Below are positions 19,424 to 42,608 of a stretch of DNA of 64,000 nucleotides, one piece after another; the first letter of the stretch is position 1, and every line of letters starts with the position of its first letter. The stretch is from positions 1 through 64,000 of the forward strand of contig NZ_WTYV01000001.1 of NCBI RefSeq assembly GCF_009827655.1. The letters run 5' to 3'. A program made the translations under genes and the position numbers. This stretch comes from Alteraurantiacibacter buctensis. GTDB taxonomy: Bacteria; Pseudomonadota; Alphaproteobacteria; Sphingomonadales; Sphingomonadaceae. The notes under the pieces are model-generated. The model was not told where the DNA came from and ran no database searches. It saw only the letters and a list, made by a program, of their open reading frames with translations.

Positions 19424-19431
19424 CTCATGAA

Positions 19432-21586: not shown

Positions 21587-21636
21587 TCGTGCTTGCATGG
21601 TGGGTATTCCGCAACCGACCGAACTGTGATCTATAG

Positions 21637-21665: not shown

Positions 21666-21672
21666 ACTTGGC

Positions 21673-21963
21673 ATGTTGGAAGTCAGGCGCACCGCCGAAT
21701 TTATCGTTTGGCTCCAGCATTTGCGTGACGTGCAGGCCCGTGCGCGGATCGCCAAACGGATCGACCGGATAGCCCAAGGCAATTTCGGCGATGCCAAAGC
21801 TATTGGCGGCGGCGTGCATGAGTTGCGCTTCACGTTCGGACCCGGATACCGAGTCTATTATACGAGGCGCGGCGACGTGGTGGTGATCCTGTTATGCGGC
21901 GGAGACAAGGGATCGCAGGTGCAAGATATCGAGCGGGCCAAGGCATTGGCCGAGGAGGTTTGA
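21673..21963 (+). CDS. RelE/ParE-superfamily toxin, HigB-2 type
   Basis: This 96-aa basic protein fits the 'addiction module killer' group: FIVWLQHLRDVQARARIAKRIDRIAQGNFGD, then GVHELRFTFGPGYRVYYTRRGDVVVILLCGGDK near the C-terminus, the RelE fold with conserved Arg and Tyr. Such toxins cleave ribosome-bound mRNA. It precedes its antitoxin by two bases, the HigBA order. I prefer ATG 21673; an upstream GTG (21655) would add six residues. Confidence 0.88.
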   Translation: MLEVRRTAEFIVWLQHLRDVQARARIAKRIDRIAQGNFGDAKAIGGGVHELRFTFGPGYRVYYTRRGDVVVILLCGGDKGSQVQDIERAKALAEEV

Positions 21964-21965
21964 CA

Positions 21966-22247
21966 ATGACTATCGAGACGAAGCCATGGGATGCGGCCGA
22001 TGTCCTCCAGACGCCGACCGATATTGCCGCCTATCTCGATGCCTATCTCGAGGACGGCACCCCCGAAGAGTTGCTTGGCGCGCTAAACACCATTGCACGC
22101 TCGCGCGGCATGTCCGCGCTGGCGCGCGAGACCGGTATCAGCCGCGAGGCACTCTACCGGGCGTTCAGCGACAACGGCAATCCGACGCTCGACACGTTGC
22201 TGCGCGTCATGAAGGCGCTCGGGGTCCGACTGGCGGTTGCCGCCTGA
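21966..22247 (+). CDS. HigA-type XRE antitoxin
   Basis: This 93-aa partner of the upstream toxin has a helix-turn-helix: MSALARETGISREALYRAFSDNGNPTLDTLLRVMKALG. The N-terminal 40 residues probably cover the toxin. Antitoxins of this group repress their own operon. Its last 41 bases overlap the 3' end of the opposite-strand excisionase-type gene, which suggests the module inserted there. Confidence 0.88.
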   Translation: MTIETKPWDAADVLQTPTDIAAYLDAYLEDGTPEELLGALNTIARSRGMSALARETGISREALYRAFSDNGNPTLDTLLRVMKALGVRLAVAA

Positions 22248-22698
22248 TTTCTCCATCAAGCGTTGCCAGCTCGTCCAAAGCCTTGCTACGCTTGGCGTTG
22301 CGCGCACGCTTGTAGGCGAACAGTGTTTCAGCCTTGATCCGGCGATGCCGCCCGACCAGTTCGTGCTCGATCTCTCCCTTGTCGAGCAGAGAAATCAGGA
22401 AGGGTCGCGAGACATTGAGAATATCGGCCGCCTGCTGTGTCGACAGCATCTGACTGACGGGGACAAGCGTCACCGCATTGCCGCTGCCGACGTGACGCAA
22501 CAGTTCGGTCAAGAGCTTCGACAGGCCAGGGGTCAAGGTGATCTCGGAAGGGATCCTGGTCTCTTCATCGAGAATGCGCAGCGTGGTCTCGCACGACGCG
22601 TGCGATGCGAGAATCTGGCGCAACTGGTTGGCAGCCGCCCGCTCCAGCGCGGACGGAAGGCGACCGCCGAGCTCCTCGGCAAAGGCTGGAATCGTCAT
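22207..22698 (-). CDS. Excisionase-family HTH protein (orphan antitoxin-like)
   Basis: The 163-aa protein holds an excisionase/MerR-like helix-turn-helix (LSTQQAADILNVSRPFLISL) after a 90-residue helical N-terminus. Proteins of this shape are usually antitoxins encoded before a PIN-domain toxin. Here no PIN gene follows; the 3' end runs into the HigBA antitoxin gene, and the last 12 or so residues look foreign. I infer that HigBA insertion removed the toxin and trimmed the antitoxin. Two TATTCGCAA repeats upstream may be its operator. Confidence 0.7.
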   Translation of the reverse strand: MTIPAFAEELGGRLPSALERAAANQLRQILASHASCETTLRILDEETRIPSEITLTPGLSKLLTELLRHVGSGNAVTLVPVSQMLSTQQAADILNVSRPFLISLLDKGEIEHELVGRHRRIKAETLFAYKRARNAKRSKALDELATLDGEIRRQPPVGPRAPS

Positions 22699-22735
22699 GT
22701 TTGGGCTCTCCGTGTCAGAACCATTATCTAGTATA

Positions 22736-22771
22736 TATTCGCAATAAACGCAACATACGAATTATTCGCAA
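22736..22771 (-). promoter_or_regulatory. Direct repeats upstream of excisionase-type gene
   Basis: TATTCGCAA occurs at 22736-22744 and again at 22763-22771, 27 bases apart (on the same helix face to within a couple of bases), in an AT-rich gap of 94 bases. This is the likely promoter and autoregulatory site of the orphan antitoxin-like gene. Confidence 0.4.
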
Positions 22772-22792
22772 AATTCTTAGAGCAAGGCTTGG

Positions 22793-27031: not shown

Positions 27032-27108
27032 GGCAAACCTCCTGACGAGGCGATGGCATGTCCACCGACCTCATCTGGCCCAGCGCCCACTTTCCTCTGT
27101 CGCGGTGG

Positions 27109-28005
27109 TCAAGGCTTCTCCGCGTGGCGGGCGAGTAGCTCGTCATTCCAGTCAAACCCCGCGGACGCTGGCACATGGATGACAATGCGCCGGTCCCCTT
27201 GAGCATAGGCACGACGCGCTCGCTTCTCGGCCAGTTGGCCGCCCGCATCGTGATCGAGAAACACGTGGAGCTCGCGTACACTCTCAGGGATCGAGACCAG
27301 GCCGAAACGTTCGTTACCAAGCGTCGCCCAACACGGTATGCCGAAGAGTGCCGTGGCCGACAGGGCAGTCTCAATGCCTTCGGCCAGGCCCAGGTGGCCA
27401 TCCACGGCAGGAGCAAGCCTGACCGCGCCAGTTCCAAGACTTCCCAAGGCGCGCCGTGGTCGCTCGAAGCTCGCCAGCTTGCGCTTCGTCGGATCGAAGA
27501 AGGTGCGGTGCACGGCAACGATGCCGACATCGACGCAAACTGCCGCCAGCATGGCCGGTAGGAATTGAACCTGCTCGCGAGGTCCGAGCGGTGTCCGGGC
27601 GAGGAAGCGCAATTGGTCTGAATGGTGGTGGATTCCCCGTTGGGCAAGGTGGTCCTCGGCGGGCGTGCCAACCAGGGGGCAAGCCGCCTGCCACAAGCGG
27701 CGTGCATTTCCGCCCGAACGATCCGGCGCTTCGCGTGCTACCAGCGGTGCGCCTGCCCCACTGAACAGCTCGCGGGCACCAACCCCGTGCCGACGCAGCG
27801 CGGTGATGATTTCGTCGTTGGTGCATCCGGCGAAGCAATGCAGCAGGATCGCTTTGCGACCCAAGCTGACACTGAGCGAGGGTGTTCGGTCGTCATGCGC
27901 CGGGCAACAGCACATGCCCTTGCCTCGGCGCCAGGTTCCGCGAAGGCTTTCGACGATTTCTCGGGCGCGGCGTTCGAGTGGCTCAGTTCCAAAAGTCTGG
28001 GGCAT
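27109..28005 (-). CDS. Toprim-domain primase-like protein (DUF7146 type)
   Basis: The 298-aa protein has an N-terminal zinc-finger region resembling CHC2 primases (CCCPAHDDRTPSLSV; LLHCFAGC) and a C-terminal Toprim domain (LAEGIETALSA with the catalytic Glu; FLDHDAGG with the DxD-like pair). It fits the primase-like gene that follows the strawberry-notch helicase in these elements and probably primes the incoming strand. ATG 28005 has CGGAG; an upstream ATG-less extension reaches 28194. It is transcribed divergently from the transglycosylase. Confidence 0.85.
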   Translation of the reverse strand: MPQTFGTEPLERRAREIVESLRGTWRRGKGMCCCPAHDDRTPSLSVSLGRKAILLHCFAGCTNDEIITALRRHGVGARELFSGAGAPLVAREAPDRSGGNARRLWQAACPLVGTPAEDHLAQRGIHHHSDQLRFLARTPLGPREQVQFLPAMLAAVCVDVGIVAVHRTFFDPTKRKLASFERPRRALGSLGTGAVRLAPAVDGHLGLAEGIETALSATALFGIPCWATLGNERFGLVSIPESVRELHVFLDHDAGGQLAEKRARRAYAQGDRRIVIHVPASAGFDWNDELLARHAEKP

Positions 28006-28130
28006 GCATCTACTCCGGTTGGGATGCCCTCCCCAGCGCAGCCTCCGCTCTGCGCCGTCATCAATCGCATTTCCTACAGTAAATGTTCTATATATGTTCC
28101 ATCGCGATTTGACTAGCAAAGGATCGAGAT

Positions 28131-28787
28131 ATGACACTGAAAACCAGCCTGATCGTAGGAATTGCGGCCGTGCTCTGGGTAGCAGCACCGGCATTTGCGC
28201 AGTCGCCGCCCGCCCTCGAAAGCGGCACGGGCGAAGCGCGTGAGCCAGCGGCAGCGGAAGGGTCGAGCGGATTTCGGTTGCTCGAACACGGCACCTGGCA
28301 GCGACCGCCAGACGCTACGTCTCCTGTCCCCTCGAAAAGCGAAGGCGGTCGGGTTCTCCTCCCCTATCATTACCCGCCGATCAGCCACGGCGGGCCTTCT
28401 GGGTTTCGTCGTGCAACCTACCTGCCACACGTTCAGGCCGCAGAAATGCGATATGCCTTGCCGCCCGGGCTCCTAGATGCATTGGTCTGGACTGAATCGC
28501 GCTACAATCCAGTTGCGGTCAGCAAGGCTGGTGCCGCAGGCCTTGGACAGCTTATGCCGGGCACGGCTCGTGATCTGGGTGTGGCCAACAGGTTTGATCC
28601 AGTGGCCAATTTGAACGGCGCCGCCAACTATCTGCGTCAGATGCTAAACAAGTTCGGCCAAGTTCACCTTGCTCTTGCAGCGTACAATGCCGGCCCCGGA
28701 GCCGTGGAACGGGCTCGCGGCATCCCACGCAATCGAGAGACTCCTGCTTATGTTCGCAATGTGCTGCGGCATTGGCGTCAATCGTGA
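28131..28787 (+). CDS. Lytic transglycosylase (SLT domain), VirB1-like
   Basis: This 218-aa protein has a signal peptide (about 1-23, AFAQ cleavage), a low-complexity linker, and a C-terminal SLT domain. The catalytic Glu lies in [10 protein letters not shown], followed by [13 protein letters not shown] and [13 protein letters not shown]. It cuts peptidoglycan in the periplasm and is the type used to open the wall for conjugation machinery. No other type IV secretion gene is present in the window, so it is an element remnant or a stand-alone enzyme. Confidence 0.9.
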
Positions 28788-29304
28788 GCTAGCAGCATTT
28801 CGGAATATATCCTTCGCACAGGTGACCTCACTAAGGGTGCCCTCGATTTGCATGTCGTCGAGCACAACAATATTGAGATTTCGATGCAAGCGCCCCCGAT
28901 CCCCGTTTGGATGGGCGCGATCGGCATTTCACAACTCCCACCGGATTTCTCGGGTGCAGAATTTGGACGGTCCCCCCGCAGGAACAACGCCATTATCGTG
29001 TCCCAAATTGTGAGCAGCATGGGAGTGTGGTAGAGACTGTGGGAGCGAGGCATTTGAACCGCCTCTTTTCGTTAGCTTATTCAATTCATTAGAGCTTTTC
29101 GCTTGCAACCTCCGTCTCCGCCAGATCCCGGATTTCCACGAACCGCAGCGAACCACTGAGAACAAGCTAATCGCTTGTTAGGCTGCGCTTTTTCATGAAA
29201 ATTTGACCGCGATGGATCGCATCAGTTCACGTCAGACCGCCGCCATATTTATGGCCTATCTTATGGCTTGAATGCTACGAGGTGTCGGTTAAAGTCGCGA
29301 AATC
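28788..29304. other. Intergenic stretch before truncated integrase
   Basis: No gene is convincing here. A 61-codon plus-strand frame (28848-29033, with a hydrophobic, Pro-rich start) lacks a ribosome site and a known motif. The stretch contains a CCA-ending segment at 29109-29123 that may be an attachment site. Confidence 0.4.
29109..29123 (+). other. Possible attachment site (tRNA 3'-end-like)
   Basis: CCTCCGTCTCCGCCA resembles the acceptor stem and CCA end of a serine-type tRNA or tmRNA. No T-loop (GGTTCGAATCC) precedes it, so it is not a gene. It lies 180 bases ahead of a P4-type integrase gene, where att sites normally sit. Confidence 0.35.
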
Positions 29305-30016
29305 ATGGCTACGCGCGCGCGAGCGAAACTGAACGTAAAGCAGGTGGCAGCCTACGCCGGGCCTGGTGTATTGTCCGATGGCGGCGGGCTGTACCTGCGT
29401 GTTCGGGAGTCGGGCCGTTCGTGGTTTTACATCGGCACCCTCAATGGGAAGCGCATCGAGATCGGCCTTGGTTCGGCGTTGGATGTGACGCTGGCCAAAG
29501 CGCGTGACAAAGCAGCAGAGGTTCGTGCTCTGATCCTTGAAGGCATCGACCCACGAATCGAAAAGGCGAAGGCCAAGGCTGCCGCGAAGCCAAAGGTCTT
29601 GTTCGGGGCATTTGCGCTCGATCACCTCGACAGCATCGAGGATGGCTTCAAGAACCCGAAGCATCGCCAGCAGTGGCGGAACACGCTGATTACCTACGCC
29701 AAGCCGATGTTTGATCTGCCGATCGAGGAGGTAAAAACCGAGCACATCCTGGAAGTGCTGCAGCCGATCTGGTTGGAGAAGCGCGAGACCGCTTCACGGG
29801 TGCGTGGTCGGATAGAGCGCGTGCTGGATGCCGCCAGAGTGAAGGGCCTGCGCCACGGCGAGAATCCTGCGCGTGGCCGTGGCCACCTCGACTTGCTGCT
29901 GCCCAAGCGCTCGAAGGTGGGGGTCAAGCACCATCCGGCACTGCCGTTCAAGCAGGTGGCCGAGTTCATGGCTGAACTGCGCCAGCGTGATATCGTGACG
30001 GCTAAGGCGTTGGAGT
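29305..30016 (+). pseudogene. P4-type tyrosine integrase, truncated by IS6
   Basis: The first 237 residues are those of a P4-type integrase: the arm-binding N-terminus (GGLYLRVRESGRSWFYIG, IGLGSALDVTLAKAR), then the core-binding helical domain (FDLPIEEVKTEHILEVLQPIW). The catalytic domain with Arg-His-Arg-Tyr is missing; the frame enters an IS6-family element at 30017 and ends inside it at 30135. Integration and excision by this enzyme are lost. Confidence 0.88.
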
Positions 30017-30856
30017 GGTGCTGTCAGTCTAACCGCAACTCGTCTCCGATGTGCGGAGTTTGCCCTACCCCAGCGTCGATTCAGGCCATGAGCAATTGCC
30101 ACTCGGCCAGGGCGGCCGAGCGGCGTATCTTGTAGGTCGTTCTGTCGACGAGGTGGCGTTCAAGGTTGAAGTGGTTGTGGACGTTGGCGTGGACCGAGGC
30201 GAACTTTTGTAAGCTTTTCATCTGTCGGAACCTGAGCATCGCCCGCTCTCGTCGTCGGAATGGCAGGTGGCTGTTCTCCACCCGATTGTTGGCCCAGCGT
30301 CCGACCTCCTGCTTCTCGGTGTTGCCGAGCTCGGTCATTGCCGCCTTGTACGAACGCAGGCCATCGGTGGTAATCTCCGCCGGTGAGCCGTGGCGCTTCA
30401 GCGCCTTCTTCATGAAGGCCAGCGCTGCCTTCTTGTCGCGGGTCTTGGTGACGAAGCTTTCGAGCACCTCGCCCTCCTGGTCGACCGCTCGCCACAGGTA
30501 ATGCATCTCGCCGTTGATCTTCACATAGACCTCGTCGAGGTGCCACTTCCACTGGCGGAAGCCTCTCATCCGGCTCACCCGCTGGCGACGGACATCGGCT
30601 GCGAACAGCGGGCCGAACCGGTTCCACCAATGGCGCACGGTCTCGTGGCAGATGTCGATGCCGCGCTCGGCCAGCAGGTCCTCAACGTTGCGCAAGCTCA
30701 GCGGGAAGCGGACGTACATCATCACGACCAAGCGGATTACCTCGGGCGACGAGTTGAAGTACCGAAACGGGCTGGCTGGTTTGCGGGGTCGGGGCATCGC
30801 AGCGCCCTACCCTCGCCGGCTTAAAACGCTAGTGGTGCATTTGGTCTGACAAAGCC
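30017..30856. mobile_element. IS6-family insertion sequence (840 bp)
   Basis: The element is bounded by imperfect inverted ends: GGTGCTGTCAGTCTAA at the left (30017) and, read inward from the right (30856), GGCTTTGTCAGACCAA. It carries one transposase gene on the minus strand. The flanks (GTTGGAGT left, TCGCCCGT right) do not match, so there is no 8-base target duplication; this suggests recombination between copies or adjacent deletion after insertion. Confidence 0.8.
30081..30797 (-). CDS. IS6-family DDE transposase
   Basis: The 238-aa transposase has the IS6 layout: a short N-terminal helix-turn-helix region (LSLRNVEDLLAERGI, ETVRHW) and a DDE core with DEVYVKING (first Asp), ITTDGLRSY (second Asp) and NNRVENSH (Glu). 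Full length and intact motifs suggest it is active. IS6 elements move by replicative cointegration and often drive local rearrangement, in keeping with the scars around it. Confidence 0.93.
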   Translation of the reverse strand: MPRPRKPASPFRYFNSSPEVIRLVVMMYVRFPLSLRNVEDLLAERGIDICHETVRHWWNRFGPLFAADVRRQRVSRMRGFRQWKWHLDEVYVKINGEMHYLWRAVDQEGEVLESFVTKTRDKKAALAFMKKALKRHGSPAEITTDGLRSYKAAMTELGNTEKQEVGRWANNRVENSHLPFRRRERAMLRFRQMKSLQKFASVHANVHNHFNLERHLVDRTTYKIRRSAALAEWQLLMA

Positions 30857-31005
30857 TCGCCCGTACATCATCGCCACCAGGCGGATCACCTCGGTTGACG
30901 AGTTGAAACGGCGAAACGGGCTTGGCGGCAGGGCTCGAGATTTGCGCGACATCAGTTCCGGCTAACTGGGCTCGACGCAAGGTGCCACGTTGCTCTGACA
31001 GAGCC
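30857..31005 (-). mobile_element. End remnant of a second IS6-family element
   Basis: An ATG at 30952 (minus strand) opens 32 codons that match the IS6 transposase N-terminus (FRRFNSSTEVIRLVAMMY), close to but not identical with the intact copy. Upstream lies a terminal repeat, GGCTCTGTCAGAGCAACG (read inward from 31005). The rest was removed where the intact IS now begins. Two related elements thus collided here. Confidence 0.72.
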
Positions 31006-31114
31006 CTTCAGGCAAAGCGGCCCACCAAGGGGAAATGCTTTCAGACGCGCTGAGCTTTTTGCCGCAAATTTGCGATTGCGACATGTCCAAGTTGGCCAGA
31101 AAAAATAATCGTTT

Positions 31115-33265
31115 ATGGTCCGCGCGATGCAACGTGTTCCCCTCCAATCTGCGCGGGTCGTAAGACAAATGTCAAAGGCTAGCGCGTTTCGTTTCGCGCT
31201 CGTTCTGGTTGCACCATGCGCCTTGGCGCTGTCTCTTTTTCTAGTAATGCGAGAGTTTCGTCAAGGAGACGAAATAGCGGCGCAGGTAGAAAACTCCCAT
31301 CGCATAAGGGCCGAGTTAACCGATCTGTTGGCGCTTCATCAAGATTTGGAGATAGGCCAACGCGGCTTGATCATAACGCAGGACCGGGAATTCCTGGTGC
31401 CCTATGAAACAGCCCGTCCCAGATTGGACGACAGTCTAGCAAGGATCGCCACAATTTTAAGCCGATCGCCCGAGTTTCAGAGACTGGCCTACCTCTCTCA
31501 CCAAAAACTGGACTTTGTCGACCGCACCATCGCCATGACGTTGGAAGGCCGCAGCGACGACGCAATCGCATTGATCCGCGAAGGACGCGGAAAGCATTTG
31601 ATGGACCAAATAAGGACATCCATCGATCGGCTGCAAGAGAGTGAACAGGACCGCCTGAACGATCGCATAATTGCGTTCCGGAGCTCGCGCGACGGTGTCG
31701 AAACGATCGTCTCGGCGATCTTCGTAGCGCTGAGTTGCATCCTGTTACTGGCAATCGCTATCACCGCACGGGCTATGCGCCTGCGGAGTGAAGCCGCGAG
31801 CAAATATCGCGAGATTAGCGCGCGGCAGGTTGCCATACTTGAAAGTGCCTACGAAGGCGTCGTCACTATCAATACAAGTGGCTCAATAGAGTCCCTTAAC
31901 CCGGCTATCCGCCAGATGACCGGATATCGGACCGACGAACTTATCAGACGCGATATCGGCATTCTTTTCGAGATCGCTCCGGACAAAGGATTCAAGGAAA
32001 GCTTTTTGCGTCGCTTCCTAAGGCGATCGGAAAGCACCGAGCGCACCTTCGAGTTGCTAGGTAGACGTAAAGACGGCACCCTTTTCCCTTGCGAAGTGGG
32101 TGTCAGCCCGGTGCAGCTGGAAACCGGAACGACATTTGTCGCCATCGTGCGCGATACGACAGAGCGGAAGCGAGTCGAACAGATGAAGAGCGAATTCGTC
32201 TCCACTGTCAGTCACGAACTGCGCACGCCGCTGACATCCATTGCCGGTTCCCTGGGCTTGGTAGCCGGCGGCGCTGCAGGTGAAATCCCCGAAAAGGCCG
32301 CCCGCCTGATCCAGATTGCGCGCGACAATTGCGACCGACTGGTTCGCCTCATTAACGATATCCTGGACCTCGAGAAGCTTGAATCGGGTCGGATGGAAAT
32401 CAAGCTCCAGCCCGTGTCTTTGCGGAGCTTCCTACCGCAGGCCGTCCAGGCGAACATTGGATATGCGCAGCAATTCGGCGTCACCCTAGAACTTGGGCCG
32501 GTAACGGATGATGCATTCGTAATGGCCGATCCGGACCTGTTGATGCAGGTTATGACCAACATACTTTCCAACGCCGCCAAGTTTTCCCTCCCCGGAGAAC
32601 CGGTAGATATCTCGGTAACTTCGCTAGACCGGCGCTGGCGTATCGATGTGACCGATCGGGGGCCCGGCATCCCGGGCGAATTTGCCACACGCATCTTCGG
32701 CAAATTCGCGCAGGCCGAGGCTACCGACAGCAGAAAAAAGGGCGGCACCGGTCTTGGCCTGTCGATAGTTCGCGAAATCCTTAATCGCATAGGTGGAGAA
32801 GTCAGTTTTGATAGCGTGGAGGATCAGGGGACCACGTTCCACGTCGATCTGCCGCGCCATGCTCACGTGGGGCGCATCAGCATTTCGGATCAGTCAGACT
32901 TCAGCGTGCTGCACGTCGAAGATGATCCGGATGTACTTGATTTGATAGAAAACGCGCTGGCCGGTCGCTACAGCCTGCAGTCGGCAAAGACGCTCGAGGA
33001 AGCGCGCGGTATCCTCGAGCATTTCAGATTCGATGTAGCGATCGTGGATTTTGCGCTGCCAGATGGCTCGGGACATGAGCTACTGCCACTCTTGCGCCGG
33101 CAGGGTGCGCATATCCTCGTATTTACAGCACAGGACACCGATCAGTCGGTTACGGCGGAAGTCGAAGGCGTGTTCATAAAGTCGAGAGCAAGTCTCGACG
33201 GACTGGTTGCAGCAATCGACGGATTGTTAGGCCAGAAGCCGCATTCCGCAGAGGAAAATTCATGA
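31115..33265 (+). CDS. CHASE3-PAS hybrid sensor histidine kinase
   Basis: The 716-aa protein holds a transmembrane helix (about 27-45), a CHASE3-like periplasmic domain (about 50-195), a second helix (about 200-225) and a PAS domain (240-350). A HisKA domain with phospho-His367 (SHELRTPL), an HATPase with N and GTGLGL boxes, and a C-terminal receiver with Asp645 (AIVDFALPDGSG) complete it. It should autophosphorylate and pass phosphate through its receiver to the Hpt protein encoded two genes on. It heads a seven-gene operon joined by short start/stop overlaps. ATG 31115 has a poor ribosome site; 31169 is a possible alternative. Confidence 0.9.
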   Translation: MVRAMQRVPLQSARVVRQMSKASAFRFALVLVAPCALALSLFLVMREFRQGDEIAAQVENSHRIRAELTDLLALHQDLEIGQRGLIITQDREFLVPYETARPRLDDSLARIATILSRSPEFQRLAYLSHQKLDFVDRTIAMTLEGRSDDAIALIREGRGKHLMDQIRTSIDRLQESEQDRLNDRIIAFRSSRDGVETIVSAIFVALSCILLLAIAITARAMRLRSEAASKYREISARQVAILESAYEGVVTINTSGSIESLNPAIRQMTGYRTDELIRRDIGILFEIAPDKGFKESFLRRFLRRSESTERTFELLGRRKDGTLFPCEVGVSPVQLETGTTFVAIVRDTTERKRVEQMKSEFVSTVSHELRTPLTSIAGSLGLVAGGAAGEIPEKAARLIQIARDNCDRLVRLINDILDLEKLESGRMEIKLQPVSLRSFLPQAVQANIGYAQQFGVTLELGPVTDDAFVMADPDLLMQVMTNILSNAAKFSLPGEPVDISVTSLDRRWRIDVTDRGPGIPGEFATRIFGKFAQAEATDSRKKGGTGLGLSIVREILNRIGGEVSFDSVEDQGTTFHVDLPRHAHVGRISISDQSDFSVLHVEDDPDVLDLIENALAGRYSLQSAKTLEEARGILEHFRFDVAIVDFALPDGSGHELLPLLRRQGAHILVFTAQDTDQSVTAEVEGVFIKSRASLDGLVAAIDGLLGQKPHSAEENS

Positions 33266-33627
33266 TTCGCGTGCTTTATGTCGATGACGAACCTGATATT
33301 CGGGAGGTCGCTTGCATGGCACTGGAGATCGACCCCGACTTTGACGTGCGCTGCTGCGCATCGGGCCGCGATGGGCTGGAAACCGCACGCGAATGGCTTC
33401 CACATATTGTCCTCCTGGATGTGATGATGCCGGGACTCGACGGTCCCTCGACCCTTCGACTTATGAAGACCGATCCCTGCTTGGGGCACATTCCCGTGGT
33501 GTTTATAACCGCGCGGGTTCACGCCAGCGAAACGGCCGATTTCATGCGGCGCGGCGCGGCGGGAATTTTGAAAAAGCCGTTCGACCCGATGACGCTGGCG
33601 ACTACCGTGCGTTCTTTTCTCGAATGA
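33262..33627 (+). CDS. Single-domain response regulator (CheY-like), first
   Basis: This 121-aa receiver has DDE at 8-10, phospho-acceptor Asp53 (LLDVMMPGLDG), Thr near 83 and Lys near 104 (KKPFDP). There is no output domain. ATGA overlap with the kinase and with the Hpt gene indicates tight coupling. It probably acts as a phosphate sink or a diffusible signal to the envelope proteins of this operon. Confidence 0.92.
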   Translation: MIRVLYVDDEPDIREVACMALEIDPDFDVRCCASGRDGLETAREWLPHIVLLDVMMPGLDGPSTLRLMKTDPCLGHIPVVFITARVHASETADFMRRGAAGILKKPFDPMTLATTVRSFLE

Positions 33628-33932
33628 CGCCGTTTGACGAGGCTCTTTTGCGGATGCGAGAATCATTTGCTCGTCAGGCAAAGGACCGGGCATTGCGTTT
33701 AGAAAGGGCGCTAATCGAGGGCGATCGGTCCGCACTTGTAGATGTCGCGCACAAGATCGCCGGGATTGCTGGCATGGTCGGCTTTCCTGATCTGGGCGAG
33801 CGCGCGGCGCAGGTGGAGGATCTGGCCGATCGACAGGTCTCATCAGCGGATTTGGCGGCGGAAGGCCGCCGGCTCGCCAAAGAACTGTTCGAACTCGGCT
33901 CCATCCACCAGCCGGAGGGCAAAGATGACTGA
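33624..33932 (+). CDS. Hpt-domain phosphotransfer protein
   Basis: This 102-aa all-helical protein has the Hpt signature VAHKIAGIAGMVGF with His43, followed by LGERAAQVED. It should relay phosphate between the receiver of the hybrid kinase and the two stand-alone receivers. ATG 33624 overlaps the preceding stop, and its own stop overlaps the next start by eight bases. A longer upstream frame from 33393 is only read-through of the receiver gene in another phase. Confidence 0.88.
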   Translation: MTPFDEALLRMRESFARQAKDRALRLERALIEGDRSALVDVAHKIAGIAGMVGFPDLGERAAQVEDLADRQVSSADLAAEGRRLAKELFELGSIHQPEGKDD

Positions 33933-34296
33933 TGGGCCGCTCATCCTGATCGCAGACGATGAGCCTTTGCTAATTGAACTGCTGCAGTTCCGCCTTACGG
34001 GACGCGGTTACCGTGTCGCGGTGGCACAAGACGGGCGCGAAGCACTCGCGAGTATTCAAGTTCAACGACCCGCTGCCGTCGTGCTGGACGCCATGATGCC
34101 CATCCACGACGGATTTGAAGTCCTGCGCCGGATCCGCGCCAATCCAGATATTGCAGATATACCAGTCATCATGCTGACCGCACGACGCAGCGAAAAGGAC
34201 GTTGTGGGAGCGCTGGAACTCGGCGCGAACGAATATTTGGTGAAACCGTTCATCCCCGAAGAGCTCTTGGCGCGCCTAGGACGGTTGGTGAAATGA
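33925..34296 (+). CDS. Single-domain response regulator, second
   Basis: This 123-aa receiver has DDE at 11-13, Asp55 (VVLDAMMPIHDG), Thr (MLTARR) and KPF near the C-terminus. The PhoB-like receiver lacks any DNA-binding part. Having two receivers, one Hpt and a hybrid kinase in consecutive overlapping genes indicates a branched phosphorelay. It overlaps the barrel gene by four bases. Confidence 0.92.
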   Translation: MTDGPLILIADDEPLLIELLQFRLTGRGYRVAVAQDGREALASIQVQRPAAVVLDAMMPIHDGFEVLRRIRANPDIADIPVIMLTARRSEKDVVGALELGANEYLVKPFIPEELLARLGRLVK

Positions 34297-35318
34297 CGGC
34301 GAGAAGCACCAAATTGTTCTTACTATCCTTGGTGTTGGCCGCCCCCTTGCCGGCGAGTGGGCAGGAGCCAGACCTTTACATGCAGGCGAGAGACGCTCGC
34401 CTTGCCGGCGAGCCAGCAGAAGCTATCCGGCTACTCGATCGCTGGTTGGCGAGCCATCCCGGCGATGTTGATGCCATGTTACAACTGGGGCTGGCCCTTC
34501 TTGCACTTGGCCGGCTGGATGAGGCCGAAAGTCAGTTTGCCGCCGTCCTTACAATCGCCCCCGATTATGCTGATGCCCGCGAGGGCATTGCGCAAATCGC
34601 TGCGCGACGCAGTGATCTGCCGAGCCTGCGCAGCCAGGTGTCGATTGATGGCGGCATCAGCTTAGTCGAGGGGCCGGCGACCAACTGGCAGGACGCAGGT
34701 GTGCTCTTCGCGACGTCGATCGATCCGAGGACAACGATTTCCGGCAGCGGAACCTATTATCGCCGGTTTGGCTTGGAAGACGTGGAACTGGGCGGTGGTC
34801 TGACCCGCCAATTCGGTCGGGATACATGGCTGCGGATGGAGGCTGGTGCCACCCCAAACGCCAGCTTCAGGCCCGAGGCGTTTGTCAGCGTGGGGGCGGA
34901 CTGGCGCCTGGCTCAGAGCAATAACGCGACCGTCGTAACCGCCGACGTCAGACATCAGGAATTTCCGACCCAAGCCGTCACGACCGTCAGCCCGAGTATT
35001 GTGCAGTATCTAGCGGATGGGCGAGTGTGGGTGACCGCACGCGTATCCGGTTTGATTGCCGAGGGCGACAATCATCTGCGACTGGGGTGGCTGGGCCGGG
35101 TCGACTACGCCCCTGTTGAAAGATACCGGCTTTTCGGGGGCTTCGCGCGCGGTGCCGATACGGAACTGGGAGTGGTCTCCAATGTCAGCAACGTTTTTGG
35201 AGGCGCTGAACTGCCCATCGGTGAAACCCTTTCGCTGATGCTATCAGCAGCGCAGGAGTGGAGGGAAGCAGGTGCAGACCGCACCGATTTCCGGATCGGC
35301 TTCAAGGTGGAGCTATGA
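34293..35318 (+). CDS. YaiO-like outer-membrane barrel with TPR start
   Basis: The 341-aa protein has a signal peptide (about 1-23), two TPR-like helices pairs (about 28-105; AGEPAEAIRLLDRWLASHPGDVDAMLQLGLALLALGRLDEAE in outline) and then a C-terminal beta-barrel (about 110-341) with alternating pattern and final Leu, in the manner of the YaiO family. YaiO proteins of E. coli lie near a glycosyltransferase gene (yaiP) and are of unknown function. Here it may export or anchor the product of the operon's glycosyltransferase. Its start overlaps the receiver gene. Confidence 0.82.
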   Translation: MTARSTKLFLLSLVLAAPLPASGQEPDLYMQARDARLAGEPAEAIRLLDRWLASHPGDVDAMLQLGLALLALGRLDEAESQFAAVLTIAPDYADAREGIAQIAARRSDLPSLRSQVSIDGGISLVEGPATNWQDAGVLFATSIDPRTTISGSGTYYRRFGLEDVELGGGLTRQFGRDTWLRMEAGATPNASFRPEAFVSVGADWRLAQSNNATVVTADVRHQEFPTQAVTTVSPSIVQYLADGRVWVTARVSGLIAEGDNHLRLGWLGRVDYAPVERYRLFGGFARGADTELGVVSNVSNVFGGAELPIGETLSLMLSAAQEWREAGADRTDFRIGFKVEL

Positions 35319-36346
35319 CCAGCCTGCTGGCCCTATGGAACGTGTCGCTCACACTTTCGGGCATGGCGCTGTTCGCGCTTACCTTGCTTCTTCTGGCACG
35401 GATACACGAAGCCCGCCGGTTGGGGCGCGATCGGACCATGCGCTCGGAATTGACTGCGCACCTGCTTGCCGGACATGCGCCGACCCGCAAGCTTACCAGG
35501 GCGCAAAGCGAGATAGCCGGCGATCTTACCATCGAATTGGCGGAACTCATGCGCGGCTCTGACCGCATGCACCTGCTAGAACGTGCCGCGGCCATGGGCG
35601 TGATCGCCGTTCTGGGCAGGCGGCTACACTCCCGCGTGGCTCAGGATCGACTGACGGCAGCCGAAGCGCTGGCCATGTTCGATGGAGAAGGCCAGGCGCT
35701 CGCCGCGACTGCCCTGGACGATCCCAATCGTGATGTCAGACTGGGCGCGGCATTGGCATTAGCGCAAAACAATGCTGCGCCCTCCCCCGCATTTCTGGCG
35801 CAGAAGCTGGGTATCGGCACCACGGAACGATCGCTACTAGTCGTGTCCCTAATGCGTGACCTGGCCGAGGCGGACGCGAACGCCGTTCAGGCACTCCTGA
35901 CACTTCCCGGCATAGCTGGCGAGACCAAGGTCGCCGCGACCGAGGCGCTGGGACTGGGCCGTCTAGTGGAAACGACGCCGCTGGTCACCTGGATCGCCGA
36001 GGCGCTGAGTGGGGATCCAGCACTTCAACCGCGCATCTACCGCGCCCTTGGACAGATGGGCCACCCCGGTGCCCGTGACGCTGTCGCTGCCGGCCTTTCC
36101 AGCCCTTCGTGGGAGGTGCGCGCCGCAGCCGCCGACGCAGCGGGTAAGATCGGCCTGACGGACCTTCTTGGCCGCCTGTCCGATCTGCTTGACGACGACT
36201 ATTGGTGGGTACGGCTCCGCGCTGGCGAAGCGCTCGCAGCAAGCGGTGCGGCCGGGCGCGACCAGCTGGTGCGGGCTGCTGCATCCGGCCCGGCGACCGC
36301 TCGCCATGCCGCCAATGCGATCCTAGCCGAAAGACAGTTGCTGTGA
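35315..36346 (+). CDS. Membrane-anchored HEAT-repeat protein
   Basis: The 343-aa protein has one N-terminal transmembrane helix (about 8-30), then helical repeats of the HEAT/PBS-lyase type (DPNRDVRLGAALAL, GLSSPSWEVRAAAADAAGKIG, LLDDDYWWVRLRAGEALAASG). HEAT repeats are protein-binding scaffolds. In this operon it could couple the receivers to the glycosyltransferase; that is inference. ATG 35315 overlaps the barrel stop; the gene ends in GTGA shared with the next start. Confidence 0.82.
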   Translation: MTSLLALWNVSLTLSGMALFALTLLLLARIHEARRLGRDRTMRSELTAHLLAGHAPTRKLTRAQSEIAGDLTIELAELMRGSDRMHLLERAAAMGVIAVLGRRLHSRVAQDRLTAAEALAMFDGEGQALAATALDDPNRDVRLGAALALAQNNAAPSPAFLAQKLGIGTTERSLLVVSLMRDLAEADANAVQALLTLPGIAGETKVAATEALGLGRLVETTPLVTWIAEALSGDPALQPRIYRALGQMGHPGARDAVAAGLSSPSWEVRAAAADAAGKIGLTDLLGRLSDLLDDDYWWVRLRAGEALAASGAAGRDQLVRAAASGPATARHAANAILAERQLL

Positions 36347-37776
36347 ACCACGTCTTTCCGGCTTGGGCCAGCGAGTGGATGATCGTCTCGGCAAGCGCGA
36401 TCGCCTCGGTAGTAATCGTCACCGGGCTCCTGCAGACGGCCCTATACATTGTGCTTCTCACGTATGCCGGCGTTGCTTTGTCGGATCGGCCTCCCATTCC
36501 GCGAGGGGCCACTCTGTGGCGACGCTATTCGGATCAGGCCCCCACAATCTCGGTCCTTGCGCCCGCTTTCAATGAAGAGCTGACAATCGTCGAAAGCGTC
36601 CGCTCGCTGCTGGCGCTGCACTATCCCGACTTCGAAGTGATCGTGATCAACGATGGCTCGCGCGATGGAACCTTGGCCAAAGTGATATCTGAATTCGGCT
36701 TGCAAAAGGTGGAGCGCTATAGCGACGACGCGGTCACTCATGCCCCTATCAGGGCTTTCTACGCATCGCCTACCCTCCCCCGGCTGCTGGTCGTGGATAA
36801 GGAAAACGGCGGCAAGTCCGATGCGCTGAATGCTGGCATCAATGTGAGCCGTAGCGCCCTGTTTTGTGCCATCGACGCCGATTCAATCCTGGAGTCCGAC
36901 GCGCTGCTCCGCGTGGTGCGTCCGTTCGTGGACTTTCCGCACCTTACCGTGGCCGCAGGCGGGACAATTCGCATCGCCAACGGGTGCCGGGTCGATTCCG
37001 GCCGCATCGCGTTCATCGGCCTGCCCACCAACTTTCTGGCGCTCGTGCAGATCGTCGAATACCTCCGAGCGTTTTTGATGGCCCGCTTGGCTCTTGGTAA
37101 AATGCAGGCCCTCACAGTCATCTCCGGAGCGTTCGGCCTGTTCCGCCGGGCTCAGGTCGTCGCTGTTGGGGGATATAGTCATGGAACCGTTGGAGAGGAT
37201 ATGGAGCTCGTACTGAAGCTTCATCGCTACATGCGCGACTCCGGGCAGCCCTATAGGGTCGACTTCATCGCCGAACCGGTCTGCTGGACCGAATGCCCGG
37301 ACACGCTGCAGGTCCTGGGTCGTCAGCGCAGTCGGTGGCAACGCGGCTCTCTGGAGTGCTTTTTTAAGCATCGGGACATGCTCTTTAACCCGAAGTACGG
37401 CCGGATCGGTCTGATTGGATTTGGCCAGATCTTGCTGGTGGATGTCCTTGGCCCGCTTATCGAAGTAGTTGGCTACCTTCTGATCCCACTTCTCTATACA
37501 GTGGGATTGTTGGCCCTACCATGGCTGCTGGCATTCCTGGCGATCACCTTCACCTTCGGCATATTTATTAGTGCTGCCACTTTGATATTAGAGGAAATAC
37601 AGCTTCACCGCTTCCCCCGCGCTTATGAACTTGCGGTTCTTGGGCTGGTCGCTGTAGCAGAGAACTTCGGCTACCGGCAGCTATCCAATTTTTGGCGGTT
37701 GCAAGGCTGGTGGCAGTACTTGCGCAAGCAGCAATCTTGGGGCGCAATGACCCGCAAAGGGTTTGGTGGGCAATAG
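36343..37776 (+). CDS. Processive family 2 glycosyltransferase (membrane)
   Basis: The 477-aa protein is a GT2 synthase of the hyaluronan/PgaC type. It has an N-terminal helix pair (about 13-43) and a GT-A domain with NDGSRDGT (Asp104), DAD (178-180), GED (284-286) and QRSRW (328-332), the set of processive enzymes. Three or four C-terminal helices (about 365-440) follow. It would polymerise a sugar nucleotide across the inner membrane. The start is GTG 36343, sharing GTGA with the HEAT gene. No PilZ domain or pgaB-like deacetylase is nearby. The polymer is unknown. Confidence 0.88.
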   Translation: MNHVFPAWASEWMIVSASAIASVVIVTGLLQTALYIVLLTYAGVALSDRPPIPRGATLWRRYSDQAPTISVLAPAFNEELTIVESVRSLLALHYPDFEVIVINDGSRDGTLAKVISEFGLQKVERYSDDAVTHAPIRAFYASPTLPRLLVVDKENGGKSDALNAGINVSRSALFCAIDADSILESDALLRVVRPFVDFPHLTVAAGGTIRIANGCRVDSGRIAFIGLPTNFLALVQIVEYLRAFLMARLALGKMQALTVISGAFGLFRRAQVVAVGGYSHGTVGEDMELVLKLHRYMRDSGQPYRVDFIAEPVCWTECPDTLQVLGRQRSRWQRGSLECFFKHRDMLFNPKYGRIGLIGFGQILLVDVLGPLIEVVGYLLIPLLYTVGLLALPWLLAFLAITFTFGIFISAATLILEEIQLHRFPRAYELAVLGLVAVAENFGYRQLSNFWRLQGWWQYLRKQQSWGAMTRKGFGGQ

Positions 37777-38271
37777 GAAAGGGAAACAAAGGGGGGCGCA
37801 CGCTTACTCCCCACATCGCTCAGTTCGCCATCGTCTGGCTTTGCCGGCAAATATTAACAGACCGCTGCCTTTGAGGGTGCAGGATAGGTCACTTCGTGCG
37901 CGTTCTCCCCGATCCCACAAAAGGAGATCCAGAAAGCCCCATTGGGTCCAAACAGGTAATGAAAAGACTGTGTCAACGCAAAGCACACAGCGGCACTTAG
38001 GCAAACCCTCAAGCCTTGTGCTGCGGCGGGAAGACGCATCGTTTGGGGGATACCTTCTCACCCACGGGCAGTGGGACGCAGGGGTTACCACGCCCGCCGC
38101 AGCGGGAAGGCTTATACAAGCGACCAGATAAGGTCGCAACCTGCGTCTAGTCTGACCCCTACAAATGGCTATCTCATTGCTTGGTTAGTTGTTCTACGGT
38201 TTGAGGTAAGCCATTTGACGTAAACAGGTTTTTGATAGAACTTGCTATCTCAGCGACCTTTAGGGGGTTCC
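37777..38271. other. Intergenic stretch after the glycan operon
   Basis: This 495-base stretch holds no recognisable gene; the open frames in it lack motifs and ribosome sites. I saw no clear terminator. It ends in the AGGGGG ribosome site of the next small gene. Confidence 0.45.
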
Positions 38272-38430
38272 ATGGTGTCCAAGCTGATCTGCCGCCTTAT
38301 CGGACATCGGATCAATCGCTGGCGGGTGAAGCATGATGGTGATTCCTTCAAGACATCTTGCGCGCGCTGCCACCAGCCCTTCGTCCGGGATATTGAGGGT
38401 TGGCACCTCGACATGCGGGCGAAGGCATAG
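38272..38430 (+). CDS. DUF1660-like small zinc-ribbon protein, copy 1
   Basis: This 52-aa protein has the pattern CRLIGHRI followed by CARC, with spacing like the short DUF1660 phage-type proteins (CxLxGH...CxxC). The two Cys/His pairs could hold a zinc ion. ATG 38272 has AGGGGG seven bases upstream; the longer frame from 38242 has no such signal. A related gene starts one base after its stop codon. Confidence 0.6.
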   Translation: MVSKLICRLIGHRINRWRVKHDGDSFKTSCARCHQPFVRDIEGWHLDMRAKA

Positions 38431-38971: not shown

Positions 38972-39196
38972 TCGACCGTTATCTGGTTGACCACCGACTG
39001 CGCAAATTGAAACCATCTGTGCATCGCCATCGCGGCGCGAAAGGTCGTAACAGAGGCTGCGTCTCTGAATCGGATCGCACGGGGCATTGTTTATCCGAAG
39101 CCGAGACATGCAAGATCCCGAGCCGGCTTGATTGACTGCCAACGGATAGCGCAGTGGAACCTGATATTAACCAGCTTCCACCACAATCCAATCGCT

Positions 39197-40960
39197 ATGG
39201 GGAAGTTTGGCAAAAACCTGTCAGAACCAATAAGAACGATGCAGATCGCCTTGGGGGTGGGCGTTCTTTATGCGCCCATCGCCATCGCTACAATTTTCGT
39301 ATCAAGCAACGGGCACAATCATGCGGCCATCTGGCTAGCTGACGCAGTCGGCTTGGCAGCGCTATTGACGTTGCCGCGCCGCGACTGGCCTTTTGTGATC
39401 ATCGCGATCGTGATCGCCAACCATCTGGCGAACGACATCACGCGTGGGTTCGAGTGGGGACACATCCTTTATGGCATGGCCAATGCCGGACAGGTGCTTT
39501 TGGCCGGGACACTCGTCAGGTCGCGCGGTGCAAACCCGCTCGCAAGTGCGGGCTCGCTGAGCCGGTTCTTTCTTTGGGCCGGGCTAGTCGCACCCCTTTG
39601 CGGGGCAGCGGTGGGTTCGCTCGTGTCCTGGTGGCTTTACCAGCAACCTTATGACACATCGATGATCCGTTGGTTCGCCAGCAATTCCCTGGGATTTCTG
39701 GTCGGCACCCCTCTATTCAGAGGTCTCTTCGATGGAAGCCTGAGGATTTCCTTCAGCCAGCTCAACGCTACCCAGCGTCAGAATATGGCGGGGCTTCTCG
39801 CAGTATTTACTCTTATCGTTTACACCGCTTTCTCGTGGCAACGCGTGCCTTTGCTTTTCTTACCGGTCTGCGCCTTGGTGATGGTGGCGGTTTGGCTTGG
39901 CAGGGTCGGCGTCACTGTCGCCATTATGATCGTGGCGTTAGTCGCAACCGCGACCATGATGAGCGACTATGGCCCGCTGGATCTCCTGGCAGTCGATGAT
40001 TTTCGCAAGGCAACCTTTTTCCAGATTTATCTGGGCCTGCTGCTGGCAACGGGACTGCTCGTCGCGGCGATCGTAACTTCACGTGGCGATGCGATGGCGA
40101 AACTGGCCGAGCGGGAACACATGCTGAGCCAGCTTCTCAAGCACGGCAAGGAAGTCATTCTCAGCCTGGACGCGGAGGGGCGTTGCAAGTTCTGTGTCGG
40201 TCCCGCCAAGTCGTTGCTAGGCTTGGCTTCCGACGACATTGTCGGGTGCACGCTGGTCGAACTGGCGCAACGCCTGGGCATCCCCTTTGCGGTGGTGGAT
40301 GCCAGCGAGTGCGCGGCGCGTTCCGCACCCTACGCACAAGAATTTCAGTTAGCACGCGCCCGGCGCACATGGGTCGAGGTTAGCATCGCGCCGATCATCC
40401 TTGATGGTTGCCTTAGTAGCTCGGTGGTTACCTTCCGTGACGTCACGATGCAGCGCGTGAGGGCCGAGGACCTCCAGCGGCGCGCTTTTACGGACGAACT
40501 CACCCAAGTCCTGAACCGGGCTGGATTTGAGAGACAGTTTGAACATTTGCTCCAAACTTCCGGCCCGCTCAGTCTGGCGCTGATTGATTTGGACTCATTC
40601 AAGAGCATCAACGATACGTTCGGGCATTCTTCCGGCGACGAGGCTTTGGCGGTGATCGCGGACATTATCGGCGCGCACACCCGCAAGGAAGACGTGGTGG
40701 GCCGAATTGGTGGAGACGAGTTTGCCATCCTATTCCGTACAGAACCAGCTATCGCTTTGGCCGCCTGCGAACGCATTTGCAAATGCGTGGAGGAGACACA
40801 GATATTTGCAACGGATCGGCGTTTGATGAACGTCACGATCAGCTGCGGAGTGGCAACGATGCCCCCTGAAGGTAACCGTCAAGCTCTCTTCGACGCGGCT
40901 GATATGGCTCTGTACAGCGTGAAGCATCATGGCCGTAATGGGGCGCGATTGGCTGCCTGA
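39197..40960 (+). CDS. MASE1-PAS-GGDEF diguanylate cyclase
   Basis: The 587-aa protein has a MASE1-like membrane sensor with eight or so helices (about 15-300), a coiled linker, a PAS-like domain (about 320-425) and a GGDEF domain. The catalytic site is GGDEF (505-509), and the inhibitory I-site RKED (496-499) lies at the standard five-residue distance. It should make cyclic-di-GMP with product inhibition. There is no EAL domain. The start is uncertain (39197 or 39239), since neither has a strong ribosome site. Confidence 0.9.
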   Translation: MGKFGKNLSEPIRTMQIALGVGVLYAPIAIATIFVSSNGHNHAAIWLADAVGLAALLTLPRRDWPFVIIAIVIANHLANDITRGFEWGHILYGMANAGQVLLAGTLVRSRGANPLASAGSLSRFFLWAGLVAPLCGAAVGSLVSWWLYQQPYDTSMIRWFASNSLGFLVGTPLFRGLFDGSLRISFSQLNATQRQNMAGLLAVFTLIVYTAFSWQRVPLLFLPVCALVMVAVWLGRVGVTVAIMIVALVATATMMSDYGPLDLLAVDDFRKATFFQIYLGLLLATGLLVAAIVTSRGDAMAKLAEREHMLSQLLKHGKEVILSLDAEGRCKFCVGPAKSLLGLASDDIVGCTLVELAQRLGIPFAVVDASECAARSAPYAQEFQLARARRTWVEVSIAPIILDGCLSSSVVTFRDVTMQRVRAEDLQRRAFTDELTQVLNRAGFERQFEHLLQTSGPLSLALIDLDSFKSINDTFGHSSGDEALAVIADIIGAHTRKEDVVGRIGGDEFAILFRTEPAIALAACERICKCVEETQIFATDRRLMNVTISCGVATMPPEGNRQALFDAADMALYSVKHHGRNGARLAA

Positions 40961-41633: not shown

Positions 41634-42608
41634 TTGACTCGGTTTCCCGCCATCCGCCGTGCGATCATCGCTGACAGGAACGCCCAGACATCCATCGCCA
41701 TAGCCGCCGGCATGATCGGAGCCGCGACGCTATTCCGCTGGCTCACCTGGCAGGTGATCCCGCATCTGGTCTTTGTCGGATATTTCCCTGCCGTGCTCAT
41801 CATCTCCCTGTTGCTGGGCTGGCGGTGGGGTTTGCCGGCGACAATTATGGCGGGAGTGATCGGAGCCTATTTCCTACCCGAACCCCCCCAGCCACTGACA
41901 AGCCCGCGCAGCCTTGCCGGGCTGCTGGCGTTCTATTTCTCCGCCGTGATCGTGGTGGCAACGGCGGACACCCTGCGCCGGACTGTTCGGGATCTCGAAG
42001 TTGCCAAGACCTCAGCAGATTACTTGAACCAGGAACTCCAGCACCGGGTGGGTAATACGCTCGCCGTGGTCCAGGCTATCGCTTCGCAGACGTTGCGGCA
42101 TGCGGGGGCAAACGATTTCCCGGTCGCTTTCGGTGGTCGGCTTCGGGCACTGGGGCGGGCCAACAGGCTGATGGGCCTTTCGTCTGAAAATCGCTGCAAC
42201 CTGCGCGATCTGGTATCCGAAGCCTGTGCACCGTTCTTCGATGGGGGTAATCTTACACTGTATGGGCCGGGAGTGCTCGTGCCTCCAGAGAGTTGCGTAC
42301 CATTGACGCTGTGCCTGCACGAGTTGTGCACCAACGCGACTAAGCATGGCGCGCTCTCGACGCCATCTGGACGTGTTTCAATATCTTGGACGCTCGCCCG
42401 GAACGGCACTTTGAAGATTACCTGGCAAGAGCATGAGGGGCCGCCGGTCCATGCCCCCTCCCGGGTGGGGATGGGCACGCGGCTGCTAACTAAACAGGAA
42501 GGCATCAAGGGAGTCGATCTCCGTTACCTACCACTCGGTTTGGAGTGCGACATCTTGATCGACGATGTCGTGTCGCAATCGGGTAGCTTCGGTCGAACGA
42601 AGCCATGA
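41634..42608 (+). CDS. HWE-family sensor histidine kinase
   Basis: The 324-aa protein has four N-terminal membrane helices of the DUF4118 type (about 15-105), then an HWE/HisKA_2 kinase core. Phospho-His137 sits in LQHRVGNTLAVVQAIA, and HELCTNATKHGAL and GMGTRL form the ATP site. HWE kinases are common in alphaproteobacteria and often govern stress or light responses. The start is TTG 41634 with GAGAGGGG ahead. A 66-aa gene overlaps its stop by ATGA. Confidence 0.88.
   Translation: MTRFPAIRRAIIADRNAQTSIAIAAGMIGAATLFRWLTWQVIPHLVFVGYFPAVLIISLLLGWRWGLPATIMAGVIGAYFLPEPPQPLTSPRSLAGLLAFYFSAVIVVATADTLRRTVRDLEVAKTSADYLNQELQHRVGNTLAVVQAIASQTLRHAGANDFPVAFGGRLRALGRANRLMGLSSENRCNLRDLVSEACAPFFDGGNLTLYGPGVLVPPESCVPLTLCLHELCTNATKHGALSTPSGRVSISWTLARNGTLKITWQEHEGPPVHAPSRVGMGTRLLTKQEGIKGVDLRYLPLGLECDILIDDVVSQSGSFGRTKP

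What the first reader, a model, noticed from the sequence alone, without database searches (positions are those of the whole stretch)
31115..37776. Seven-gene phosphorelay-to-glycan operon
A hybrid CHASE3 kinase, a receiver, an Hpt, a second receiver, a YaiO-like barrel, a membrane HEAT protein and a processive GT2 are joined by six consecutive 4- to 8-base start/stop overlaps. None of the regulators has a DNA-binding part. This suggests direct post-translational control of a polysaccharide machine, with the HEAT protein as the likely docking scaffold. Synthase and outer-membrane barrel are present, but no known deacetylase, PilZ or Wzx/Wzy parts are. I know of no characterised system with this composition.
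Basis: partly seen in the sequence, partly recalled or inferred. Interest (0 to 1): 0.8.

Follow-up and report, generated by a model that had tools for sequence, protein, structure and literature searches.

The report
Phosphorelay-wired polysaccharide synthase with HEAT adaptor
A bacterial gene set in which a sensor kinase relay appears to control a sugar-polymer-making membrane enzyme directly, through a small receiver protein and a membrane-anchored scaffold; its central trio of genes recurs in distant bacterial groups and no description of it was found.

Summary
The seven genes, their order and the six overlaps (4, 4, 8, 4, 4, 4 bases) are real. The seven-gene order is peculiar to this genome: of 109 loci compared, window included, only the window has all seven on one strand. 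The conserved part is smaller and more widespread: a receiver domain, a HEAT protein and the GT2 synthase lie close together in 62 of 65 GT2-retrieved loci with at least 3.5 kb upstream, in ten phyla by record title. A YaiO-type match joins in 52 of 58 of these from outer-membrane lineages and 0 of 7 from others. In Alphaproteobacteria a kinase-receiver-Hpt cassette accompanies the core in several layouts. Some relatives fuse Hpt to the kinase and keep one free receiver, of REC2 type, which points to REC2 as output. GT2 models as a processive synthase (best PDB match hyaluronan synthase), HEAT as a membrane-anchored solenoid. Best reading: a multistep phosphorelay whose last receiver acts, with the HEAT protein, on a synthase-dependent polysaccharide machine. 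Direct contact, sign of control and the sugar made are not shown. Ten full-text searches found no description of it.

The parts
31115..33265 (+). Hybrid sensor kinase: CHASE3 - PAS - HisKA - HATPase - C-terminal REC (716 aa)
   Evidence: by eye the C-terminal REC keeps the acidic pair, Asp, Thr and Lys positions
33262..33627 (+). REC1, single-domain receiver; likely intermediate phosphate carrier
   Evidence: natural REC1-Hpt fusion in L068; kinases without their own REC in L044 (Pfam) and L054 (short tail)
33624..33932 (+). Hpt phosphotransfer protein (102 aa)
   Evidence: the only PF01627 match found in the genome outside CheA
33925..34296 (+). REC2, single-domain receiver, member of the conserved core; likely output
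   Evidence: Asp56 and Lys108 invariant in 21 hand-picked rows, 20 of REC2 type and the window's REC1
34293..35318 (+). TPR + YaiO-type outer-membrane barrel; likely exit of the polymer
   Evidence: signal peptide by eye
35315..36346 (+). Membrane-anchored HEAT-repeat protein (343 aa): one long N-terminal helix (2-52) then a helical solenoid
   Evidence: AlphaFold2 mean pLDDT 95.7; nearest solved folds are alphaRep binders
36343..37776 (+). Processive-type GT2 polysaccharide synthase (477 aa), long helices at both ends
   Evidence: AlphaFold2 mean pLDDT 92.1; best PDB match hyaluronan synthase, E 6.7e-16, with BcsA and chitin synthases below

Best explanation
This is a sensor-to-synthase unit. 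The CHASE3 kinase autophosphorylates on a signal; phosphate passes through a receiver (the kinase's own REC and/or REC1) to the Hpt and then to REC2. Phosphorylated REC2 acts on the membrane-anchored HEAT protein, which gates the processive GT2 synthase; the polymer crosses the inner membrane through the synthase and the outer membrane through the TPR-YaiO barrel. Shown: gene content, motifs, predicted folds of HEAT and GT2, conservation of the core, co-inheritance. Inferred: direction of phosphate flow, REC2 as output, HEAT as the physical link, export route. Not known: whether phosphate turns the synthase on or off, what the kinase senses, which sugar is made.
For: Core adjacency: of 80 loci retrieved with GT2 patterns, HEAT is next to GT2 in 77 and a receiver domain lies within 4.5 kb on the same strand in 70; of the 65 with at least 3.5 kb upstream, 64 and 62. 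In 51 of the 65 that receiver looks stand-alone, in 11 it sits in a longer or multi-receiver protein, in 3 there is none. Broader samples: the 7 of 385 class genomes with the GT2 are also the 7 with strong HEAT matches, adjacent in 6, the 7th pair on two contigs of a 350-contig assembly; of 398 phylum genomes, 13 of the 14 with GT2 have a full-length HEAT match right beside it. Two genomes (the window's and G091) were alignment seeds and are in both samples. The GT2 is at least 43% identical to the window's in 76 selected others, across phyla. Barrel: 52 of 58 against 0 of 7 (rows, grouped by the titles). Output receiver: L073, L086, L087, L140, L143 have HK-REC-Hpt kinases, L035 too with Hpt just under its cut-off (23.5 against 24.6), and one free receiver, of REC2 type, in the stretch read. 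Intermediate receiver: the L044 kinase has no REC but REC1 and Hpt follow it; L068 fuses REC1 to Hpt. Cassette: 31 loci besides the window hold all seven parts, none in the window's layout. REC2-type Asp and Lys conserved. One other Hpt in the genome, in CheA.
Against: No complex was modelled, and no fusion of receiver, barrel, HEAT and GT2 with each other was found in L019-L116. Distance correlations are positive for every pair, so they show co-inheritance, not a particular contact. Receivers without output domains can also be sinks. L104 has no receiver at the thresholds used and L072 neither receiver nor HEAT; in L073 the free receiver lies beyond the kinase on the other strand. The L142 kinase, beside a core with one free receiver, has no Hpt by Pfam, so its relay is incomplete as read. 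In Neomarinimicrobiota the receiver is part of an Hpt-REC-GGDEF-REC protein (L081), so c-di-GMP may enter there.
Confidence: 0.58

Rival explanations
1. REC2 is a phosphate sink or side branch, and the HEAT protein is a structural part of the synthase (assembly or stability factor) rather than a signal receiver. The kinase cassette is merely co-inherited.
For: No physical contact is shown; single-domain receivers serve as sinks in some known relays (recalled). HEAT is slightly more constant than the receiver: 64 against 62 of 65, and the receiver is stand-alone in only 51 of 65.
Against: A receiver domain with intact Asp and Lys stays near HEAT and GT2 across phyla even where kinase, Hpt or barrel differ or are not found nearby.
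Confidence: 0.2
2. The output runs through c-di-GMP: the relay controls a diguanylate cyclase (e.g. the MASE1-GGDEF protein at 39128-40960) and the synthase answers to c-di-GMP through an unrecognised site.
For: GGDEF gene 1.35 kb downstream; Hpt-REC-GGDEF-REC protein beside the core in L081.
Against: No PilZ matched in the seven proteins. No GGDEF in the four Clostridium neighbours scanned (three of L084, one of L093). Whether the window's GGDEF gene is a conserved neighbour was not tested.
Confidence: 0.12
3. The GT2 makes or decorates a short glycan (glycolipid or coat sugar) rather than a secreted long polymer.
For: Substrate and product unknown; scores for PgaC, cellulose synthase and NodC all lie far below their cut-offs.
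Against: Invariant Asp motifs and QRxRW residues in 77 rows, fold matches to hyaluronan and cellulose synthases, and a TPR-barrel partner in most outer-membrane lineages.
Confidence: 0.1

Closest known systems
PgaABCD / IcaADBC (poly-N-acetylglucosamine) systems
   Same: Membrane GT2 of the PgaC/IcaA sort (best NCBIfam match, 133 bits); TPR-plus-barrel outer-membrane partner as in PgaA (recalled)
   Different: Below the PgaC cut-off (422); no deacetylase matched among the seven proteins; the control parts are a phosphorelay and a HEAT protein
Bcs cellulose synthase
   Same: Processive GT2 fold; synthase-dependent secretion under post-translational control (recalled for Bcs)
   Different: No PilZ matched; 54 bits against a 699 cut-off for CelA/BcsA; Bcs control is by c-di-GMP (recalled)
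YaiO outer-membrane barrel family
   Same: YaiO barrel domain (TIGR04390 75.4 bits over cut-off 32)
   Different: Here with N-terminal TPRs beside a receiver-HEAT-GT2 core; a search on YaiO and outer membrane listed 18 papers, none concerning such a system by title or abstract start (listing only)
Multistep phosphorelays (ArcB/BarA type; Spo0F-Spo0B-Spo0A type; types recalled)
   Same: Kinase, receiver, Hpt and receiver, in separate proteins or with Hpt fused to the kinase
   Different: The last receiver has no DNA-binding domain and is encoded beside a synthase
EpsW, single-domain receiver of an EPS cluster (Myxococcus, recalled)
   Same: Lone receiver encoded with polysaccharide genes
   Different: REC2 scores 65.6 bits against a 200 cut-off

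Membership tests
Processive GT2 polysaccharide synthase | Conserved Asp motifs and QxxRW | tested here: met
   D104, D178, D180, D286, Q328, R331, W332 invariant in 77 rows
Processive GT2 polysaccharide synthase | Synthase fold with membrane helices | tested here: met
   Model matches hyaluronan synthase and BcsA; TM-scores about 0.45-0.6 with large rmsd, so fold class only; a channel is not shown
Processive GT2 polysaccharide synthase | Makes a long polymer | not testable with these tools
   needs biochemistry
PgaABCD system | PgaC equivalog | tested here: not met
   133.3 bits, cut-off 422.3
PgaABCD system | PgaB deacetylase in the operon | tested here: not met
   no such domain matched in the seven proteins
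Bcs cellulose system | BcsA equivalog with PilZ | tested here: not met
   54 bits against 699.1; no PilZ
YaiO outer-membrane barrel family | TIGR04390 domain above cut-off | tested here: met
   75.4 bits, cut-off 32; Pfam PF19413 23.2, cut-off 23.9, just below
Multistep phosphorelay | HisKA/HATPase, REC, Hpt and a further REC all present | tested here: met
Multistep phosphorelay | Phosphate moves HK to REC to Hpt to REC2 | not testable with these tools
   supported only by fusions and layouts
EpsW-type EPS response regulator | NF041866 above cut-off | tested here: not met
   65.6 bits, cut-off 200

The most novel reading that the evidence does not exclude
Receiver-HEAT-GT2 is an ancient, phylum-crossing control module in which a phosphorylated receiver, through a membrane HEAT adaptor, directly gates a polysaccharide synthase: a phosphorelay counterpart to c-di-GMP/PilZ control, with the sensor part and the outer-membrane exit added lineage by lineage.
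Probability: 0.45. Interest if true: 0.82.

Novelty: new variant of a known kind. Interest (0 to 1): 0.64.

Why it matters
Synthase-dependent polysaccharides such as cellulose and PNAG are best known to be switched after translation by c-di-GMP (recalled). A module that puts a two-component receiver in that place, with relatives in Alphaproteobacteria, Clostridium, Solirubrobacter, Acidobacteria and others, would give a second general way for bacteria to decide when to build matrix, and a readily testable one. It also points to a conserved synthase subfamily whose product is unknown.

Tried and rejected
Membership in Pga, Bcs, NodC or EpsW families: rejected on curated cut-offs. Fusions of receiver or synthase with HEAT as proof of contact: none in L019-L116. 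Distance correlation as proof of specific contact: positive for every pair, so used only for co-inheritance. Promoter scan of 30700-38300: 4 sigma-70-like matches against 2.5 expected, none between the transposase and the kinase start. Inverted repeats bounding the IS6 copy: none convincing in 28000-31200. Literature: ten full-text searches gave nothing on this system; one search listed 20 of its 43 papers. Passages found by term in PMC12419801, PMC3826837 and PMC8117528 were unrelated.

Caveats on counts: one search compares 108 loci plus the window, found by HEAT, GT2 or DNA similarity. Five pairs have identical GT2 (L023/L042, L037/L136, L038/L135, L019/L058, L077/L078), so the 20 rows of the convergent layout are 17 distinct, the 12 of the next are 11, and 0 of 7 for the barrel is 0 of 6. 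The seed alignments A1-A4 came from genomes first picked by their HEAT protein (plus L019), so near relatives are biased towards having HEAT; the distant phyla were not in the seed. One search kept the best 80 of 578 confirmed stretches. The barrel threshold (25 bits) is lax: several matches in distant phyla are weak and may be TPRs only. Which lineages have an outer membrane, and the phyla, are taken from titles and recall. Rows left out by hand: L020 from all alignments; A5 used 91 of 96 HEAT references and A6 76 of 102 GT2 references, dropping near-duplicates, short pieces and some others; A7 is a hand-picked set of 21. Of the HK+Hpt-type kinases, seven were scanned with Pfam: five pass, L035 is just below cut-off, L142 has no Hpt.
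Full report
Seven open frames run from 31115 to 37776 on the + strand with overlaps of 4, 4, 8, 4, 4 and 4 bases. Pfam gives CHASE3-PAS-HisKA-HATPase-REC, REC, Hpt, REC, TPR plus barrel, HEAT and GT2; no DNA-binding, PilZ or deacetylase domain matched. The barrel passes NCBIfam's YaiO domain cut-off (75.4 against 32) but falls just short of Pfam's (23.2 against 23.9).

The first widening was a search of 199 genomes of the family with the HEAT protein: 17 matched, the window's own included. In the other 16, receiver (REC2) - barrel - HEAT - GT2 stand in the same order, mostly with overlaps of 1 to 8 bases and in a few places with gaps. Plasmids of Mesorhizobium ciceri and Devosia carry the set as well; the Devosia copy looks broken.

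A scan of named genome contigs with the GT2 alignment gave 80 loci. HEAT stands next to GT2 in 77 of 80 and a receiver domain lies within 4.5 kb on the same strand in 70 of 80; of the 65 loci with at least 3.5 kb upstream, 64 have HEAT, 62 have both and 52 have a barrel match. The receiver looks stand-alone in 51 of the 65, sits in a longer or multi-receiver protein in 11 (e.g. Neomarinimicrobiota, Gemmatimonadota, one Clostridium) and is missing in 3. Loci with both HEAT and receiver span, by title, Pseudomonadota, Verrucomicrobiota, Actinomycetota, Bacillota, Bacteroidota, Neomarinimicrobiota, Gemmatimonadota, Bdellovibrionota, Acidobacteriota and Margulisbacteria; many are metagenome bins whose titles may be wrong. 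Grouping the 65 by title, the barrel is matched in 52 of 58 from outer-membrane lineages and in 0 of 7 from Solirubrobacter (two of three records are one strain), Thermoleophilia, Clostridium and Symbiobacteriaceae. That is what an outer-membrane exit would predict, though the barrel threshold is lax.

Two broader samples support the link. In 385 genomes of the class, 7 hold the GT2 at E 1e-80 or better, and the same 7 hold the only strong HEAT matches (1.6e-37 or better; the next is 3.1e-13); 6 pairs are adjacent and the seventh is on two contigs. In 398 genomes of the phylum, 14 hold the GT2 and 13 of these have a full-length HEAT match directly beside it; the 14th, G888, has none at E 1e-10, and the GT2 of G698 has a stop inside. 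The other listed HEAT matches all begin at model position 100 or later, that is, they cover repeats only. The window's genome and G091 were seeds and are in both samples, and other genomes may be shared. In the genus, 10 of 40 genomes have a GT2 match, so the unit is patchy.

The kinase part varies in layout. Of 109 loci, window included, only the window has HK-REC1-Hpt-REC2-YaiO-HEAT-GT2 on one strand. Twenty rows (17 distinct) have the core facing Hpt-REC1-HK on the other strand, Aurantiacibacter relatives among them; twelve (11 distinct) have HK-REC1 upstream and Hpt facing the core from downstream; one (L044) has HK-REC1-Hpt after the core. Thirty-one loci besides the window hold all seven parts at the thresholds used, and their pairwise distances correlate (HK-HEAT 0.91, HEAT-GT2 0.95, REC2-HEAT 0.89); every pair correlates, so this shows shared inheritance only. 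The window genome has just one other PF01627 match, in a protein with the CheA domains.

The relatives suggest the direction of the relay. Kinases with REC and Hpt in one chain (L073, L086, L087, L140, L143; L035 with Hpt just under its cut-off) come with a single free receiver of REC2 type in the stretch read; in L073 it lies beyond the kinase on the other strand. The L142 kinase has no Hpt by Pfam, which this reading does not explain. The L044 kinase has no receiver of its own but is followed by REC1 and Hpt, and L068 fuses REC1 to Hpt. Read together: kinase, then own REC or REC1, then Hpt, then REC2. The phosphorylation Asp and the Lys are invariant in 21 hand-picked receivers. In the window the kinase keeps its own REC, so both it and REC1 may feed the Hpt, or one may be a drain.

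The synthase is well conserved: at least 43% identical to the window's in 76 selected others, with the Asp motifs and QRxRW invariant. Its model (mean pLDDT 92.1) resembles hyaluronan synthase, BcsA and chitin synthase. It scores far below the cut-offs for PgaC, cellulose synthase and NodC, so its sugar is unknown. The HEAT protein models as one long N-terminal helix followed by a solenoid (mean pLDDT 95.7), most like alphaRep binding proteins, which fits an adaptor but does not prove one. No fusion of core members was seen in L019-L116, and complexes were not predicted.

Conclusion. I take it as a new variant of synthase-dependent polysaccharide secretion in which a phosphorelay receiver with a HEAT adaptor takes the place usually held by c-di-GMP and PilZ (the latter recalled). 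Ten full-text searches of the held library found no description; most subscription papers are not in that library.

Noticed in passing
window 28131-30797: Lytic transglycosylase, an integrase with arm and central domains but no match to the catalytic domain, and an IS240-type transposase stand just upstream of the operon; the element's ends were not found.
   Followed up: partly
window 18394-28194, - strand: Mobile-element-like genes: Strawberry-notch helicase, ArdC-type protein, ParB, Toprim/DUF7146 protein.
   Followed up: partly
window 39128-40960: MASE1-GGDEF diguanylate cyclase 1.35 kb downstream of the operon, followed by a HWE histidine kinase at 41634-42608.
   Followed up: no
L084:5712-7835 and L093:6098-8257 (Clostridium): A protein of 707 or 719 aa with no Pfam match at E 0.001 sits directly before the receiver-HEAT-GT2 core.
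   Followed up: no
L081:6795-8324 (Neomarinimicrobiota): Hpt-REC-GGDEF-REC protein just before the core, so phosphorelay and c-di-GMP may meet there.
   Followed up: no
L095:5892-8435 (Symbiobacteriaceae) and L110:4765-7224 (Pseudomonas bin): CHASE3 kinases precede the core outside Alphaproteobacteria too.
   Followed up: partly
L020 (Devosia plasmid) and L045: The Devosia copy has kinase, barrel and GT2 split over several frames, and GT2 is split in L045: decayed or frameshifted copies.
   Followed up: no
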